Shown in pieces: positions 430 to 45,568 of a stretch of 64,000 bases of DNA. A model generated the notes under the pieces. It searched no databases and was not told the origin of the DNA. It saw only the letters and a list, made by a program, of their open reading frames with translations. The translations under genes were made by a program, and so were the position numbers. This DNA is from Pseudomonas synxantha (GTDB lineage Bacteria; Pseudomonadota; Gammaproteobacteria; Pseudomonadales; Pseudomonadaceae), in assembly GCF_900105675.1 (NCBI RefSeq), contig NZ_LT629786.1, positions 6,510,001 through 6,574,000 on the forward strand. Reading direction: 5' to 3'. Every line of letters begins with the position of its first letter. Within the stretch, counting starts at the first letter, position 1.

Positions 430-3400
430 ATGGCATCTCGATCTCTTGGCACGCTGACTCTGGATCTGATAGCCCGTATTGGCGGCTTCCAGCAAGGAAT
501 GGATCGCGCATCCCGGTCTGTTGCCAGCACTGGGGCCGCTGCTGATGCCGCATCGGCACGAATCAATGCGCTACAGGGTCAATTCCTGTCGCTATCGAGC
601 GTCGCGTCAAAGATTGCTGGCCCTTTGGCGGCGGCATTCAGCCTAAACAGCGTATATCAGGCCACCGAGGCCTATAGCTCCTTAACGAATCGTCTCAAGC
701 TCGTAACGAATGGGTCGGACGAACTGGTTGCGGCTCAGAAAGCTGTTTTCGACATTGCCCAAAGCTCTCGGCAGCCATTGTCGGCAACTGCTGAGTTATA
801 TCAGCGAATTGCCACCAATCAGACAGCTCTCAAGTTGTCTGGAGAGGGTGTTGCTGGGGTCGTTGGGACGATCAGCAAGACTCTGGCGATCTCGGGTGCT
901 TCAGCGGAGAGCGCTAACGCGGCGCTTATCCAATTAGGGCAGGCTTTTGCGTCCGGCGTGCTGCGCGGTGAAGAACTGAACTCCGTGATGGAGCAGGCCC
1001 CGGCGTTGTCCCAGGCAATTGCGGCAGGCATGGGCAAAACCGTTGGGCAGTTGCGCACGATGGGGGCTGCCGGTGAGCTTACTGCGCAGGCAGTGGTCAA
1101 GGCGCTACAAAGCCAAGCGGGCGCGGTGGACACCCTATTTGCCAAGACCGCCACGACAATCGGCAACAGCTTTACCGCGATCAGCAACTCAATGACTCGG
1201 CTTATCGGCGAATTGGATCAGGCCACCGGTGCGAGTGCGAAGGTGGCCGCTGAGTTTGTCGGATTGTCAAAAGCGATAGACGGAAGTTTGCCGGGCGCGC
1301 TGACCTCGTTGCGAAACAATTCCGACGCGCTCGCGCAAGCTATGACAACTGGGCTATACGTGGCGCTGGGGCGAGTCGCCGGTGGATTTGCTCAGCAAGG
1401 GGCTCAAGCTCTTTACGCTGCCGCTTCAAACCAAACGCTGTTGACCGCTACTGCCGCAACAGCGAAGGGCGACTTGTACGCAGCGCAGGCAAAGCAAATT
1501 GATGCGAAGGCTTTACTTCAACGTGCCAATCTTGAAATCGCCTCGGCACAAGGAAAGGTAGCTTCAGATCGTGTCAGGCAGGCATCTGAGCTCGCAAGCA
1601 TCACGACCGTTCAGGCGTCCCTGGCAGCAGAGCGCTTGCTGGAGCAGCAGCGGCTGGCGGCACAAATAAATGATACCGGCCGGGCCGCGTCGATCTCCCG
1701 CATTGCGGAACTTCGACTCGCTGAAGTTGCAGTCACAAAGAAAGTTGAGCAGGCCGAGCGTTCTCTTGCCTCGACTACCGTTGCGACCTCGCTGGAGATA
1801 CAGGCGGCATATGCGAAAAGAACAGCGGCTGCATTAGCGTACGGAGAAACCACTGCGGTCGTTAATGCTGCTGCGGTTGCATCCGACAGAGCTGCCGCTG
1901 CAGCCAGTATCGCCGGTCGTGCATTTGGTGTGATGGCCGCAGCAGGCCGCGGATTACTGGCTTTGATGGGCGGCCCGGTTGGTCTGCTTTTCGTTGCTGG
2001 CGCCCTAGCACTCTCGTTCGCCGACTTCCGCTCCAGCACCGAGAAGGCGGCTCAGGGCCTTGAGGGCTTGAAAGGTCCGCTCGACGAGGTTATTGCCAAA
2101 TTCCAACAGCTGACACGCGACCAAAAAGCTGCAGCCATGATTCGCTGGGGGGAAGCTGAGGCAGAGGGTATAAAGGCGGCTGGCGAGGAGTACGACAAAC
2201 TCCAGAAAATGCTTAAAACAGGTTTGGTGGGCCCCCGATCGAGTGCGAGCGGAACCGCCATTTTTCTTGAGTACAAGAAAAAAATTGAGGAAGCATCCGC
2301 AGCTGGCAAGGATCTTTCGCCGATCCTGGAAGAGCTGAGATCTAACAGCCAGGTCGACCCCAAGTTCGTCGATTCGCTAGTAAAAAGAGCCGGCGCCTAT
2401 TCCTTGGTTAAAACCGCGCAAGCCGAAGCGCGGGATCGTCTCAATGCCCTGAACAGCGAGATGAACAAAGGAGTGGCTGTCACGACTGGCGCTACCCAGG
2501 CGACCACGGGTATGACCGCTGCTGGTGAGAAGTACCTGAAAGCCCTGCAAACCCAACTCGGAAAACTCCAAGACAATAACGATGAGGTAAAGGAGGCAAA
2601 CCGTTATATCGCTGAGCACAAAGAGCTATCCGAGGCGGACAAGACTGCAATCATGTCAGCCGCCTACGCGTCCAAGGCCCAGGCAGACGCGAATAAGGCT
2701 GCCACGAAAGAAACCCAGAGCCATACCTCCGCGCTCAAGGCAAACCTCAAAACCTTTGAGGATGCCGAGGAAAACTACAAGCGCCAGATTGCCTTGATCG
2801 ACGAAACATCGGGGAAAAAGCAGAAAGCGACCGAGGTTGAGAAGCTGGCGTTTGAAATCGCCAGCGGCAACTACGCCAAGCTCAGTGAGGCCAGGCAGAA
2901 AGAACTGCAAGGGCTGGCCGCTGATCTCGATGCGAAGAAAGCGTTGGTAAAGGCCAATCAGGACGCCGCGAAGCTCGCCGCCCTGGGCTACAACCTCAAA
3001 GAAAGTAATCAGTCAGCCAAGGATGGGTTTGACCGGGAGCTCGCTGGTGCTGGTGAGGGTGACAAGTACAAGGCTCGGCTAAAAGAGTTTCTGTCGATTG
3101 ACCAGGACTTCAACAAACAGCGCCGGGAAATGTACAAGGAGTACAAGGACGCAACGCTGGCTGGCGATCCTGATGCACAGGAGAACTACGACAAGGAAAC
3201 CGCTCTCTTGGAGGAGGCTCTGGCCGAGAGAATCGTCATTCAGCAGGACTACTACAACCAACTCGACGAAGCTCAATCGAACTGGATGGATGGTGTCAGC
3301 AGCGCATGGCAGAACTACGTCGACGCGGCAACGGATTATTCAGCGATGGCGGCCGATGCGACTTCTTCCGTCCTGGGTGGAGCAAAGAGCAGCCTCAGCA

Positions 3401-42786: not shown

Positions 42787-43242
42787 TTACTTGAAACCGA
42801 GCTGACGCCAGCCTTCGTAGACGGCGACGGCCACGGTGTTGGACAGGTTCAGGCTGCGGCAGCCCTCGCGCATCGGCAAGCGCAGGCGGTGGCCGTCGGG
42901 CAGGGCGTCGAGCACGTCGGCCGGCAGGCCACGGCTTTCCGGGCCGAACAGGAAGGCGTCGCCTTCGGCAAAGCTGGCATCATGAAACGGCCGTGAGCCC
43001 TTGGTGGTGAACGCAAACAGCCGTGGATGGCCCAGGCTTTCCAGGCAGCTGGCCAGGTCGGCATGGCGCTGGAGGGTGGCGTACTCGTGATAGTCCAACC
43101 CGGCGCGGCGTAGGCGCTTGTCGTCCATGTCAAAGCCCAGCGGCTCGATCAAATGCAGGTGGCAGCCACTGTTGGCGCACAGCCTGATAACGTTGCCGGT
43201 ATTCGGCGGAATTTCTGGTTGAAAAAGGATGACGTGAAACAT
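42787..43242 (-). CDS. trmL: tRNA (cytidine(34)-2'-O)-methyltransferase TrmL
   Basis: The 151-residue SPOUT enzyme methylates the wobble base of tRNA-Leu. The start MFHVILFQPEIPPNTGNVIRLC and the knot region FLFGPESRGLP and LRLPMREGCRSLNLSNTVAV are diagnostic. ATG 43242 is chosen; a frame open to 43845 runs across a repeat and RNA region and is not supported. Its start codon overlaps the start of the divergent gene by two bases. Confidence 0.95.
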   Translation of the reverse strand: MFHVILFQPEIPPNTGNVIRLCANSGCHLHLIEPLGFDMDDKRLRRAGLDYHEYATLQRHADLASCLESLGHPRLFAFTTKGSRPFHDASFAEGDAFLFGPESRGLPADVLDALPDGHRLRLPMREGCRSLNLSNTVAVAVYEGWRQLGFK

Positions 43243-43681
43243 GCACGGCTCCGAAGGCAAAGATGCGCTGCATTCTACCCCTGAAGACGACCCCAGGCCG
43301 AAGCTATTGCCGAGGGTCTTGGGTTCGTTGGCGATTGTCGGCTTGATGATTGGCCTGATGATTGGTCGCCTGACCACCCCAGACCCGGTTGAGCTGCAGC
43401 AAATAGAGACGGCGACGGACGGCATCGTGGTGTGGTTCAACAGCGAGCCCAAGCTGCATGGCGAACATATTGATGGCACCGTGGCGCTGCTGTTCGACGC
43501 ACTGGGCAAACCTGCCGGCGGGCAACTTAAGGTCAATGACAAGGATGTGAACTGGCGCGTGCGCAAGACCGATGGCGGTTTGCTGCTGAACCTGGTGGCG
43601 GCGCGGCCATTGCGAGGGGAATGGAAAGGCGAGCAGGTCGATGACCGCTGGCGGCTGGAGGTCCATCTCCAAGAGCAATAA
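43241..43681 (+). CDS. conserved membrane-anchored hypothetical protein
   Basis: The 146-residue protein has one membrane segment near residues 25-45 (VLGSLAIVGLMIGLMIG) and a presumably periplasmic remainder (FxH-like WFNSEPKLHGEHIDGTVALLF; VNWRVRKTDGGLLLNL). Family function is unknown. In other Pseudomonas a small gene at this position also sits between ntrC and trmL. Its ATG at 43241 overlaps the trmL ATG by two bases, so the two genes diverge from the same point. A Shine-Dalgarno-like AAGGA lies about 11 bases upstream, within trmL. Confidence 0.72.
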   Translation: MHGSEGKDALHSTPEDDPRPKLLPRVLGSLAIVGLMIGLMIGRLTTPDPVELQQIETATDGIVVWFNSEPKLHGEHIDGTVALLFDALGKPAGGQLKVNDKDVNWRVRKTDGGLLLNLVAARPLRGEWKGEQVDDRWRLEVHLQEQ

Positions 43682-43799
43682 AAGAGGGAGTTCCCGGCCT
43701 GCCTGTACCAGGGCTCCCAAAAGCGTGAAGCCCAAGGGCTCCGTATAAAAGAGGGGATTCTCGGCCTGCCTGTACCAAGGTCCCCGAAACTGGGTCGTA
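43676..43799 (-). ncRNA. nrsZ: nrsZ-like nitrogen-regulated small RNA
   Basis: Two hairpin units, 43681-43718 and 43748-43785, differ at six of 38 bases, and every difference is a compensatory pair change (positions 9 and 35, 10 and 34, 14 and 31 of the unit). This is the pattern of a conserved RNA structure. Transcription on the minus strand would start about 43799, just below the sigma54 promoter at 43810-43825. It would end after the second hairpin, which is followed by TCTTTTATT. NrsZ (previously P11) of P. aeruginosa is an NtrB/NtrC- and sigma54-dependent RNA next to ntrC with tandem stem-loops. The position next to ntrC, the promoter and the structure fit. The exact ends are my estimate. 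Confidence 0.75.
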
Positions 43800-43809
43800 C
43801 CAGGGTTAT

Positions 43810-43825
43810 TGCAGGGGGCGTGCCA
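43810..43825 (-). promoter_or_regulatory. sigma54-type promoter of the nrsZ-like RNA
   Basis: On the minus strand TGGCACGCCCCCTGCA matches TGGCACG-N4-TTGCW, with GG and GC at the correct distance (one mismatch at the T before TGC). It lies 11-12 bases before the predicted RNA start. Confidence 0.75.
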
Positions 43826-43859
43826 GAGTCGTCGATTTGTGCCAAATAATGTCTTCAGA

Positions 43860-43897
43860 AAGCCCAAAGCGCCGGATTACGGGGCTTTGGTGTTTTT
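43860..43897 (+). terminator. hairpin with T-run, possible terminator
   Basis: CCAAAGC (43864-43870) pairs with GCTTTGG (43884-43890), followed on the plus strand by TGTTTTTG. It could end plus-strand transcripts from the hypothetical gene at 43241. An alternative pairing exists on the minus strand but lacks a clear T-run. Confidence 0.4.
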
Positions 43898-43966
43898 GCA
43901 GCTCAATATTTTCCGGGCTGTTCGGTTGTTTCATCTTTGAAAGGTCTGCCCGATGCCGGTTCATGG

Positions 43967-43983
43967 TGCATCGAAGCGGTGCA
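43967..43983 (-). promoter_or_regulatory. candidate NtrC-binding site upstream of the nrsZ-like RNA
   Basis: TGCATCGAAGCGGTGCA matches the NtrC consensus TGCACC-N5-GGTGCA with two changes in one arm. It lies about 150 bases upstream of the sigma54 promoter, a usual enhancer distance. Confidence 0.5.
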
Positions 43984-44012
43984 CAATCCTGCGGCCTTGT
44001 AGAGATCCAAAT

Positions 44013-44099
44013 GTGGGAGGGGGCTTGCTCCCGATAGCGGTGTATCAGTCAGCAACTCTGTAGCTGACCCACCGCCATCGGGAGCAAGCCCCCTCCCAC
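44013..44099. repeat. REPIN, 87 bp
   Basis: Inverted GTGGGAGGGGGCTTG arms downstream of the ntrC stop codon (33 bases away), between ntrC and the nrsZ-like RNA. Confidence 0.92.
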
Positions 44100-44131
44100 A
44101 TTAGACTTTCCAGTGGATCTGAGAGGTGTGA

Positions 44132-45568
44132 TCAGGCGTCATCGCTTTCGTCGTCATCCCCCCCATCCACCTTCATCCCCAGCTCCTTGATCTTGCGCGT
44201 CAGGGTATTGCGTCCCCAACCGAGCAACACTGCCGCATCGCGACGACGACCGGCGGTGTGCTTGAGGGCAGTCTCGATCATGATCCGCTCGAACGCCGGA
44301 ACGGCGCTGTCCAGCAGGTTCGACTGGCCGCGGGCCAGGGCCTGGTCGGCCCATTGGCGCAAGGCCTGTTCCCAGTTGGTCACCGGGGCCGAATCCTGCG
44401 GCAGGCTGAGCAGCTCAGGCGGCAGGTCGCTGATATGCACTTCGCGCCCGGACGCCATCACGGTGATCCAGCGGCAGGTGTTTTCCAGCTGGCGCACATT
44501 GCCGGGCCACGGCAGGTTCTTGAGGTATTCCTCGGTCTCGCTTTTGAGCAGCTTCGGCTCTACGGCCAGCTCCAGGGCGGCGCGGCTGAGGAAATGGCGG
44601 GCGAGGGTGGGAATGTCTTCGCGGCGGTCCGACATGCGTGGGATATGGATGCGGATCACATTGAGGCGATGGAACAAGTCCTCACGGAATTTGCCCGCGT
44701 GTACCAAAGTTTCCAGGTTCTGGTGGGTGGCCGCAATGATGCGCACATCGACCTTGACCGGCGTATGCCCGCCGACGCGGTAGAACTCACCGTCTGCCAA
44801 TACCCGCAGCAAGCGCGTTTGGGTATCGGCCGGCATATCACCGATTTCATCGAGGAATAGCGTACCGCCGTCGGCCTGTTCAAAACGCCCGCGCCGCAGG
44901 TTGGCGGCGCCGGTGAATGCACCTTTCTCATGACCGAACAGCTCTGACTCCATCAAGTCCTTCGGGATCGCCGCCATGTTCAGCGCGATAAACGGCGAGG
45001 CCGCCCGTGGGCTGTGGCGGTGCAGTGCATGAGCCACCAGCTCTTTGCCGGTACCTGACTCGCCGTTGATCAGCACGGTGATGTTGGAGTGGCTCAAGCG
45101 CCCGATGGCGCGAAACACTTCCTGCATCGCCGGCGCTTCACCGATGATTTCCGGGGTGCGGGTCAGGGTGGGCGGGGCTTCCTGGTTCTGTTGTTCCTGG
45201 GCGTGCTGGTTGGCACGCTTGACCAGCGCCACTGCCTCATCCACGTCAAACGGCTTGGGCAGGTACTCAAAGGCGCCGCCCTGGTAGGACGCGACAGCGC
45301 TGTCCAGGTCCGAGTGCGCAGTCATGATGATCACTGGCAGGCGCGGGTGCTGCTCGCGGATGCGTGCGAGCAAGTCCAGGCCACTGGCGCCGGGCATGCG
45401 GATGTCGGAGATGATCACGTCTGGCTGCTGGCGCGCCAGGCGGCTCATCACGCCGTCGGCGCTGTCGAAGCTCTGGGTGGTCATGCCTTCCTGTTGCAAG
45501 GCTTTCTCCAGGACCCAGCGGATAGAACGGTCGTCATCGACGATCCAGACAGTTTCACTACGGCTCAT
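44132..45568 (-). CDS. ntrC: nitrogen regulation response regulator NtrC (sigma54 activator)
   Basis: The 478-residue enhancer-binding protein has a receiver domain with aspartate in [12 protein letters not shown]. The AAA+ domain has Walker [16 protein letters not shown] and the sigma54-contact loop [16 protein letters not shown]-terminal Fis-like helix-turn-helix ends [21 protein letters not shown]. It activates glnA and other nitrogen genes under nitrogen limitation. It overlaps ntrB by four bases. Confidence 0.97.

What the first reader, a model, noticed from the sequence alone, without database searches (positions are those of the whole stretch)
43676..43825. Small RNA between ntrC and the trmL-adjacent gene with two covarying hairpins and a sigma54 promoter
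Two 38-base units (43681-43718, 43748-43785) differ at six positions, and the six form three base pairs that switch together (A-T to G-C, G-C to A-T, C-G to T-A). This is strong evidence for a conserved RNA stem. A near-perfect sigma54 promoter (TGGCACG, then CTGCA at the right distance) drives the minus strand, and a candidate NtrC site lies about 150 bases upstream. Location and layout match NrsZ of P. aeruginosa. Open points are whether the two units are processed apart and what they target here.
Basis: partly seen in the sequence, partly recalled or inferred. Interest (0 to 1): 0.7.

Follow-up and report, generated by a model that had tools for sequence, protein, structure and literature searches.

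The report
Two-hairpin NrsZ nitrogen small RNA
This is the known Pseudomonas nitrogen-starvation small RNA NrsZ in a short, two-hairpin form; by itself it is ordinary, but relatives carry from one to eight copies of the same hairpin, some of them at other places in the genome.

Summary
Two 38-base units differ at six positions that form three compensatory pairs, and the interval matches Rfam NrsZ (RF02695) on the minus strand, 86.9 bits against a cut-off of 76.9. A sigma54 box with one mismatch (43810-43825) and NtrC-type sites TGC-N11-GCA (43967-43983, 43954-43970) are conserved in relatives. The addition is comparative. NrsZ is built from a 43-base module (covarying stem, nearly fixed loop UACAGGCAGG, U-rich tail), found in 291 of 298 genus genomes with one to eight copies (tallied). 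Copy number changes at least 38 times on an ntrC tree of 135 rows. Nineteen of 168 distinct arrays, all single-module, had neither ntrC nor trmL in the DNA fetched, yet kept the sigma54 box. Rfam's model passes its cut-off in 203 of those 298 genomes. An exact-match search found no conserved mRNA partner. Transcription, processing and targets in this organism are not shown. New member of a known family; copy-number elasticity is the interesting part.

The parts
43652..43799 (-). NrsZ small RNA gene (3' end uncertain; +1 near 43799 inferred from the -12 element)
   Evidence: Rfam RF02695, 86.9 bits, 43652-43796; start inferred
43747..43789 (-). module 1: hairpin plus U-rich tail
   Evidence: module model R1, 66.9 bits
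43680..43722 (-). module 2: hairpin plus U-rich tail
   Evidence: module model R1, 67.9 bits
43765..43774 (-). loop decamer UACAGGCAGG of module 1
   Evidence: decamer in 93 of 100 module hits
43698..43707 (-). loop decamer UACAGGCAGG of module 2
43810..43825 (-). sigma54 promoter box TGGCACGCCCCCTGCA
   Evidence: conserved in relatives
43865..43889 (.). hairpin between enhancer-like sites and promoter, conserved; probably the ntrC transcription terminator
   Evidence: conserved block; role inferred
43967..43983 (.). NtrC-type site TGC-N11-GCA
   Evidence: site form as described in PMC6606865 (passage)
43954..43970 (.). overlapping second TGC-N11-GCA; a third conserved block TGA-N11-GCA follows at 43947-43963
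44132..45568 (-). ntrC, upstream neighbour
43241..43681 (+). 146-aa hypothetical ORF on the opposite strand; its stop codon touches the tail of module 2
   Evidence: no Pfam match
42787..43242 (-). trmL-like methyltransferase, downstream neighbour
   Evidence: frame, start; name recalled

Best explanation
The interval encodes NrsZ. Under nitrogen limitation phosphorylated NtrC binds the TGC-N11-GCA sites and, across the ntrC terminator hairpin, activates RNA polymerase with sigma54 at 43810-43825. The transcript carries two copies of one functional module: an 11-pair hairpin that presents an 8- to 10-nt loop (UACAGGCAGG), followed by a U-rich tail suited to Hfq binding and nuclease cleavage. 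The modules are probably cut apart and act in trans by pairing of the loop with mRNA leaders, as reported for rhlA in P. aeruginosa. Module number is an evolutionarily elastic dose setting: more copies give more loops per transcript. Shown: identity, module structure, promoter and site sequences, conservation and copy-number range. Inferred: activation by NtrC here, processing, Hfq binding, the pairing mechanism, the dose effect.
For: Rfam NrsZ above the curated score; one Rfam match in the genome, and its two module hits are both here. Covariation, 0 of 500 shuffles. Loop decamer in 93 of 100 module hits over 50 loci, 30 of them from outside the window's genus (the model itself favours the loop). 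Sigma54 box before the first module in 168 of 168 distinct arrays: 165 by script with a loose pattern set after looking (149 with a stricter one; none in shuffled controls) and three by eye, where a changed first module had been missed. TGC-N11-GCA in 125 of 170 upstream regions against a shuffle mean of 17.9 and maximum 27, mostly at -157 to -160 and -145 of the box. Review passages: NtrB/C and RpoN control, processing, first 60 nt sufficient, motif ACAGGCAG, target rhlA.
Against: No expression data for this organism. The stretch is not unusually stable for its composition. No conserved complement of the loop was found near starts of orthologous genes. Of 32 mostly single-module or other-genus loci that I listed, 21 show no TGC-N11-GCA within 320 bases of the box, and in the other 11 its place varies, so NtrC control outside the window's clade is not supported by sequence; spacing 10 also occurs in 55 of 170 regions. 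Hfq: NrsZ appears in one CLIP-seq set with a difference that was not significant (passage), and two reviews list Hfq binding as not described or ND. In four genomes of group g3 the last module has a changed loop, which a strict one-loop view does not predict.
Confidence: 0.8

Rival explanations
1. NrsZ is an RNA-binding-protein sponge: each module is a binding site for a protein (Hfq or another), and arrays with more modules titrate more of it. The loop is fixed because a protein reads it.
For: Near-fixed loop over many genera with no conserved mRNA complement found by exact search; copy number from one to eight is easy to explain by stoichiometry; each hairpin has a U-rich tail.
Against: Reviews for P. 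aeruginosa describe post-transcriptional activation of rhlA with the first 60 nt sufficient, and single-module forms are the usual form in many genera. No protein that reads this loop came up in my calls.
Confidence: 0.15
2. The hairpins act in cis, as terminator-like or antisense elements for the opposite-strand 146-aa ORF that ends in module 2, and the NrsZ likeness is secondary.
For: The ORF's stop codon lies at 43679-43681, in the tail of module 2, and a relative of this ORF was found beside the array in 31 of the 50 loci listed.
Against: Module and sigma54 box persist in 19 of 168 arrays with no such neighbour in the fetched DNA; what is conserved (loop, box, U tail) reads on the minus strand.
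Confidence: 0.04
3. It is a decaying remnant: the two-module form lost the modules that matter in the three-module relatives.
For: The window's nearest relatives form a two-module group of 11 rows nested among three- and four-module arrays.
Against: Both modules keep the decamer, score like those of relatives, and differ within the hairpin only by compensatory changes; single-module forms are common (79 of 291).
Confidence: 0.03

Closest known systems
NrsZ (RF02695) of Pseudomonas aeruginosa
   Same: Rfam match over the cut-off, place next to ntrC, loop motif ACAGGCAG, sigma54 box, tandem stem-loops
   Different: Two modules here; the Rfam consensus has 236 positions. Target rhlA is reported for P. 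aeruginosa; whether the window's genome has rhlA was not searched.
NfiR of Pseudomonas stutzeri A1501 (PMC6606865; abstract, passages and four sections seen)
   Same: Short, one stem-loop, NtrC-bound TGC-N11-GCA sites, NtrC- and Hfq-dependent, a sigma54-like site
   Different: Its sequence, read by eye from the printed Northern probe and primers, lacks ACAGGCAG; it lies beside a nitrite reductase gene; its authors relate it to P11, not to NrsZ
sRNA released from the glutamine synthetase mRNA of Enterobacteriaceae (PMC9731577; title and start of abstract only; the name GlnZ is recalled)
   Same: Nitrogen-responsive base-pairing sRNA
   Different: Comes from a 3' UTR; no relation was tested

Membership tests
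NrsZ (RF02695) | Covariance-model match at or above Rfam's gathering score | tested here: met
   86.9 bits against 76.9
NrsZ (RF02695) | Gene lies just downstream of ntrC, same strand as ntrC | tested here: met
NrsZ (RF02695) | Stem-loop modules with loop motif ACAGGCAG | tested here: met
   two modules with the motif
NrsZ (RF02695) | Sigma54 promoter | tested here: met
   sequence only: one mismatch, exact spacing, conserved
NrsZ (RF02695) | NtrC control | tested here: inconclusive
   site sequences present and conserved in the clade; binding and expression not testable
NrsZ (RF02695) | Induction under nitrogen limitation and processing into short forms | not testable with these tools
   needs RNA
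NrsZ (RF02695) | Activation of rhlA | not tested
   rhlA was not searched for in this genome
NfiR | Same RNA sequence or loop | tested here: not met
   NfiR sequence read by eye lacks the loop octamer
P11 | Match to the P11 family | tested here: inconclusive
   43500-44200 gives no P11 row at E <= 1 against 4227 Rfam families; that P11 is one of them is recalled, not checked

The most novel reading that the evidence does not exclude
NrsZ is not a fixed multi-hairpin RNA but a dose-tunable tandem array of one 43-nt loop module. Selection keeps the loop while recombination adds and removes modules, so that species set the strength of their nitrogen response through module number (one to eight). 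The module with its sigma54 box is also a portable cassette found at other chromosomal places, and its main partner across the family is a still unknown RNA or protein rather than rhlA.
Probability: 0.25. Interest if true: 0.6.

Novelty: new member of a known kind. Interest (0 to 1): 0.35.

Why it matters
For the window itself little: a catalogued sRNA in a further species. For the family it matters that the working unit seems to be the single 43-nt module: 291 of 298 genus genomes hold it, but only 203 of the same 298 pass the cut-off of the 236-position Rfam model, so annotation by that model may miss NrsZ in many species. Natural arrays of one to eight copies are a ready series for testing how sRNA valency sets regulation. 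The nearly fixed loop across genera suggests (inference) a shared, unidentified partner, which is unlikely to be rhlA in all of them; the spread of rhlA was not searched.

Tried and rejected
Targets. The complement of the loop decamer, CCTGCCTGTA, was searched in five genomes: 48 hits, 11 of them the NrsZ modules themselves, against 20 for the pattern read backwards. All 37 others were read in context. What recurs (gltB, a phosphoenolpyruvate-synthase regulator, nadB; names recalled from sequence) always codes Thr-Cys-Leu-Tyr, so codon use can explain it and part of the excess. Single hits near starts, such as one ahead of iscS in G028, were not found again in the other four genomes. One attractive hit, 14 bases with one G-U (paired by eye) at codons 16-20 of sucC in G028, is poorly kept: 4 of the 30 sucC loci read have CCTGCCTGTA, 13 have CCTGCCCGTA, 13 other forms (58 of 59 genomes had sucC). 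A pattern with CTGCCTGT ahead of a ribosome-binding site and ATG gave 42 places in eight genomes against 13 for the reversed pattern; 30 of the 42 were read: the two genes that recur (ttcA-like, glutathione-transferase-like; names recalled) are hit inside their coding frames, no other gene recurs among those read, and 12 places were not read. Three complements in the window lie in intergenic or coding DNA with no leader role seen. Exact matching only; G-U and split pairing were not covered, so a shared target is not excluded.

NfiR as a one-module NrsZ: looked likely from its size and NtrC control, dropped on reading its sequence.

Occurrence outside the family: in an order-wide sample (14 of 293 genomes with a match) only one lies outside the family, G557 at 28.1 bits, inside a 421-aa frame on the other strand and without the loop decamer: taken as chance. 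No module in viral contigs by one exact pattern, none like the window's in plasmid or phage records.

NtrC consensus TGCACCANNNTGGTGCA (recalled): 3 of 170 regions come within two mismatches and 24 more within three, better than shuffles but a loose description; TGC-N11-GCA fits better, a form adopted after reading PMC6606865.

Rows left out and hand work: L042 (contig ends before the site) and L070 (no array beside ntrC) were dropped from the second tree; with them it was 39 changes in 137 rows. It is a quick tree of 747 columns with 53 of 134 inner branches open, so 38 is rough. Modules were counted through the exact octamer, which misses changed loops; for 12 loci the counts were put in by hand. 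The tally was copied by hand into; those counts are genome-wide, made with strict filters, and so are lower bounds not checked to lie in one array each.

Full report
What is there. The minus strand of 43652-43796 matches the Rfam family NrsZ (RF02695, nitrogen-regulated small RNA) with 86.9 bits, over the gathering score of 76.9; it is the only NrsZ match in the window and in its whole genome. The gene follows ntrC (44132-45568, minus) and runs into the end of an opposite-strand 146-aa ORF (43241-43681) without Pfam match. The two units of the finding differ at six of 38 positions, which are three pairs changed on both sides; each folds into an 11-pair hairpin with loop ACAGGCAG.

Is it more than chance. 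From the loci then in hand (those with two or more octamers; 363 units) came 114 distinct units of 46 bases. I picked 42 for variety and aligned them over 43 columns. There 96.3% of cells pair (shuffles 91.6), 20 cells show changes on both sides (shuffle mean 4.8, 0 of 500 as high; sliding the partner gives at most 10), and 5 of 11 pairs have such a change (5 of 500 shuffles reach that); the number of pair types is not exceptional (105 of 500). The selection required the octamer, so loop identity in that set proves nothing. In the model search over 50 loci, 30 of them from outside the window's genus, 93 of 100 hits carry UACAGGCAGG, one the octamer only and six neither; two of those six are chance hits in L125 and four are the last module of g3 genomes. 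The model itself favours the loop. Against: the 149-nt stretch folds no better than shuffles.

Control region. The box TGGCACGCCCCCTGCA (43825-43810) has the exact spacing of a -24/-12 promoter and one mismatch to the recalled consensus. An alignment of 99 upstream regions (loci up to L111) shows conserved blocks: the box and what follows; a terminator-like hairpin AAAGCCCCG...CGGGGC; and, above it, gTGCACCgc..cAAtGCACc and tGAaCCg..ATcG.GCA. The upper blocks hold the TGC-N11-GCA form that PMC6606865 gives for NtrC (passage). It occurs in 125 of 170 upstream regions against a shuffle mean of 17.9 (maximum 27); other spacings from 8 to 14 occur in 10 to 55; most sites stand at -157 to -160 and -145 of the box. 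In the window they are at 43967-43983 and 43954-43970. The plan is enhancer-like sites, ntrC terminator hairpin, promoter, modules; that NtrC binds is inferred.

The module as the unit. A covariance model of the 43-nt module (R1) found it in 291 of 298 genomes of the genus sample (285 of 288 of those at least 90% complete and at most 5% contaminated). Copies per genome: one in 79, two in 56, three in 115, four in 28, five in 7, six in 1, seven in 4, eight in 1 (tallied). Of the seven genomes without a match four are under 90% complete; G037, G157 and G273 are 99-100% complete but in 80 to 1200 contigs. The Rfam model has a match in the same 291 and passes its own cut-off in 203 of 298. In the family sample 162 of 198 genomes and 15 of 19 genera have the module at E <= 0.01: usually one copy outside the window's genus, but one to five in group g3 and three to five in g128. 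On a quick ntrC tree of 135 rows copy number changes at least 38 times (57-66 in 100 label shuffles), so it is inherited but labile. The window belongs to a two-module group of 11 rows with P. khavaziana, P. libanensis, P. orientalis, P. poae, P. trivialis, P. paracarnis, P. paralactis and unnamed others, set among three- and four-module relatives. In six long arrays (L002, L003, L004, L007, L022, L204; repeats taken from one loop to the next, compared without gaps) the inner repeats are 76-99% alike, leaving out the last repeat of L003, L004 and L007, while the first is 45-62% like the others. This points to recent tandem growth inside the array behind a separately kept first module. One genome has five modules at a 43-base period, without spacer (L205).

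Place. Of 168 arrays distinct in sequence, 149 have ntrC, trmL or the 146-aa ORF in the DNA fetched; 19 do not (14 in group g2, 3 in the window's genus, 2 in g126), and all 19 are single modules. For 14 of the 19 only 1.5 kb on each side was read; trmL is usually within about 1 kb of the array but 2 kb away in L193, so a few may still lie near it. Neighbours read include a DUF6701 protein and a solute-binding protein (L188), or a META-domain protein and a DinB-like polymerase (L118). One genome, G594, holds two single modules, one beside trmL and one beside a DUF6701 gene 2.4 kb from ntrC. The sigma54 box stands before the first module in all 168 (165 by script, three by eye), 149 of them by the stricter pattern; the loose pattern was set after looking. 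Of 32 loci that I listed from this side of the family, 21 show no TGC-N11-GCA. So promoter plus module is conserved more than the address, and NtrC control at the other addresses is open.

How it works. From review passages: NrsZ of P. aeruginosa is made under nitrogen limitation by NtrB/C and RpoN, is cut into shorter species, the first 60 nt suffice, the motif ACAGGCAG is named and rhlA translation is raised. The original paper was not held; I recall, without a call, that it speaks of three similar short modules. The window's sequence has what these statements need. A shared mRNA partner of the loop was not found, by exact complements only. A protein sponge remains possible.

What is new. 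The identity is known. I found no statement of the copy-number range, single-module forms or other addresses in what I saw: passages in seven papers that hold 'NrsZ' (for PMC6606865 also four sections; for PMC7291925 only a reference-list entry) out of 30 that hold the word, 29 of them listed and some plainly unrelated, and the listings; 'RF02695' gave no paper. The original NrsZ paper was not readable, so this is no claim that nobody has seen it.

Noticed in passing
window 44010-44102 and others: A REP-like hairpin (GTGGGAGGGGGCTTGC and its inverse; the name REP is recalled) lies between ntrC and the NtrC-type sites; the 16-mer occurs 22 times in the window against 0.04 expected. Rfam's sub-threshold miRNA matches there look like artefacts of the hairpin.
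   Followed up: partly
L205 (G001), 3017-3231: Five modules in tandem at exactly 43-base period, with no spacer.
   Followed up: partly
L166 and L167 (G594): One genome with two separate single-module loci, one on the trmL side and one on the ntrC side beside a DUF6701 gene, as if the usual locus had split with a module on each part.
   Followed up: partly
L070 (Pseudomonas sp. JUb42): No module found in the 6.35 kb around ntrC; a short unrelated frame follows ntrC instead. The rest of the genome was not searched.
   Followed up: no
L122, L123, L124, L180 (group g3), last module: The terminal module keeps the stem but has a changed loop: ACCAGGCAGG in three, TTCAGGCAGG in one.
   Followed up: no
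L222/L254 (G028), sucC codons 16-20: 14-base complementarity (one G-U, by eye) to the NrsZ loop region near the sucC start; the decamer complement is kept in 4 of 30 sucC loci read.
   Followed up: yes
L118 and other single-module loci of group g2: A GC-rich inverted repeat follows the module within about 25 bases (by eye), likely a terminator, which would give an RNA of about 100 nt.
   Followed up: no
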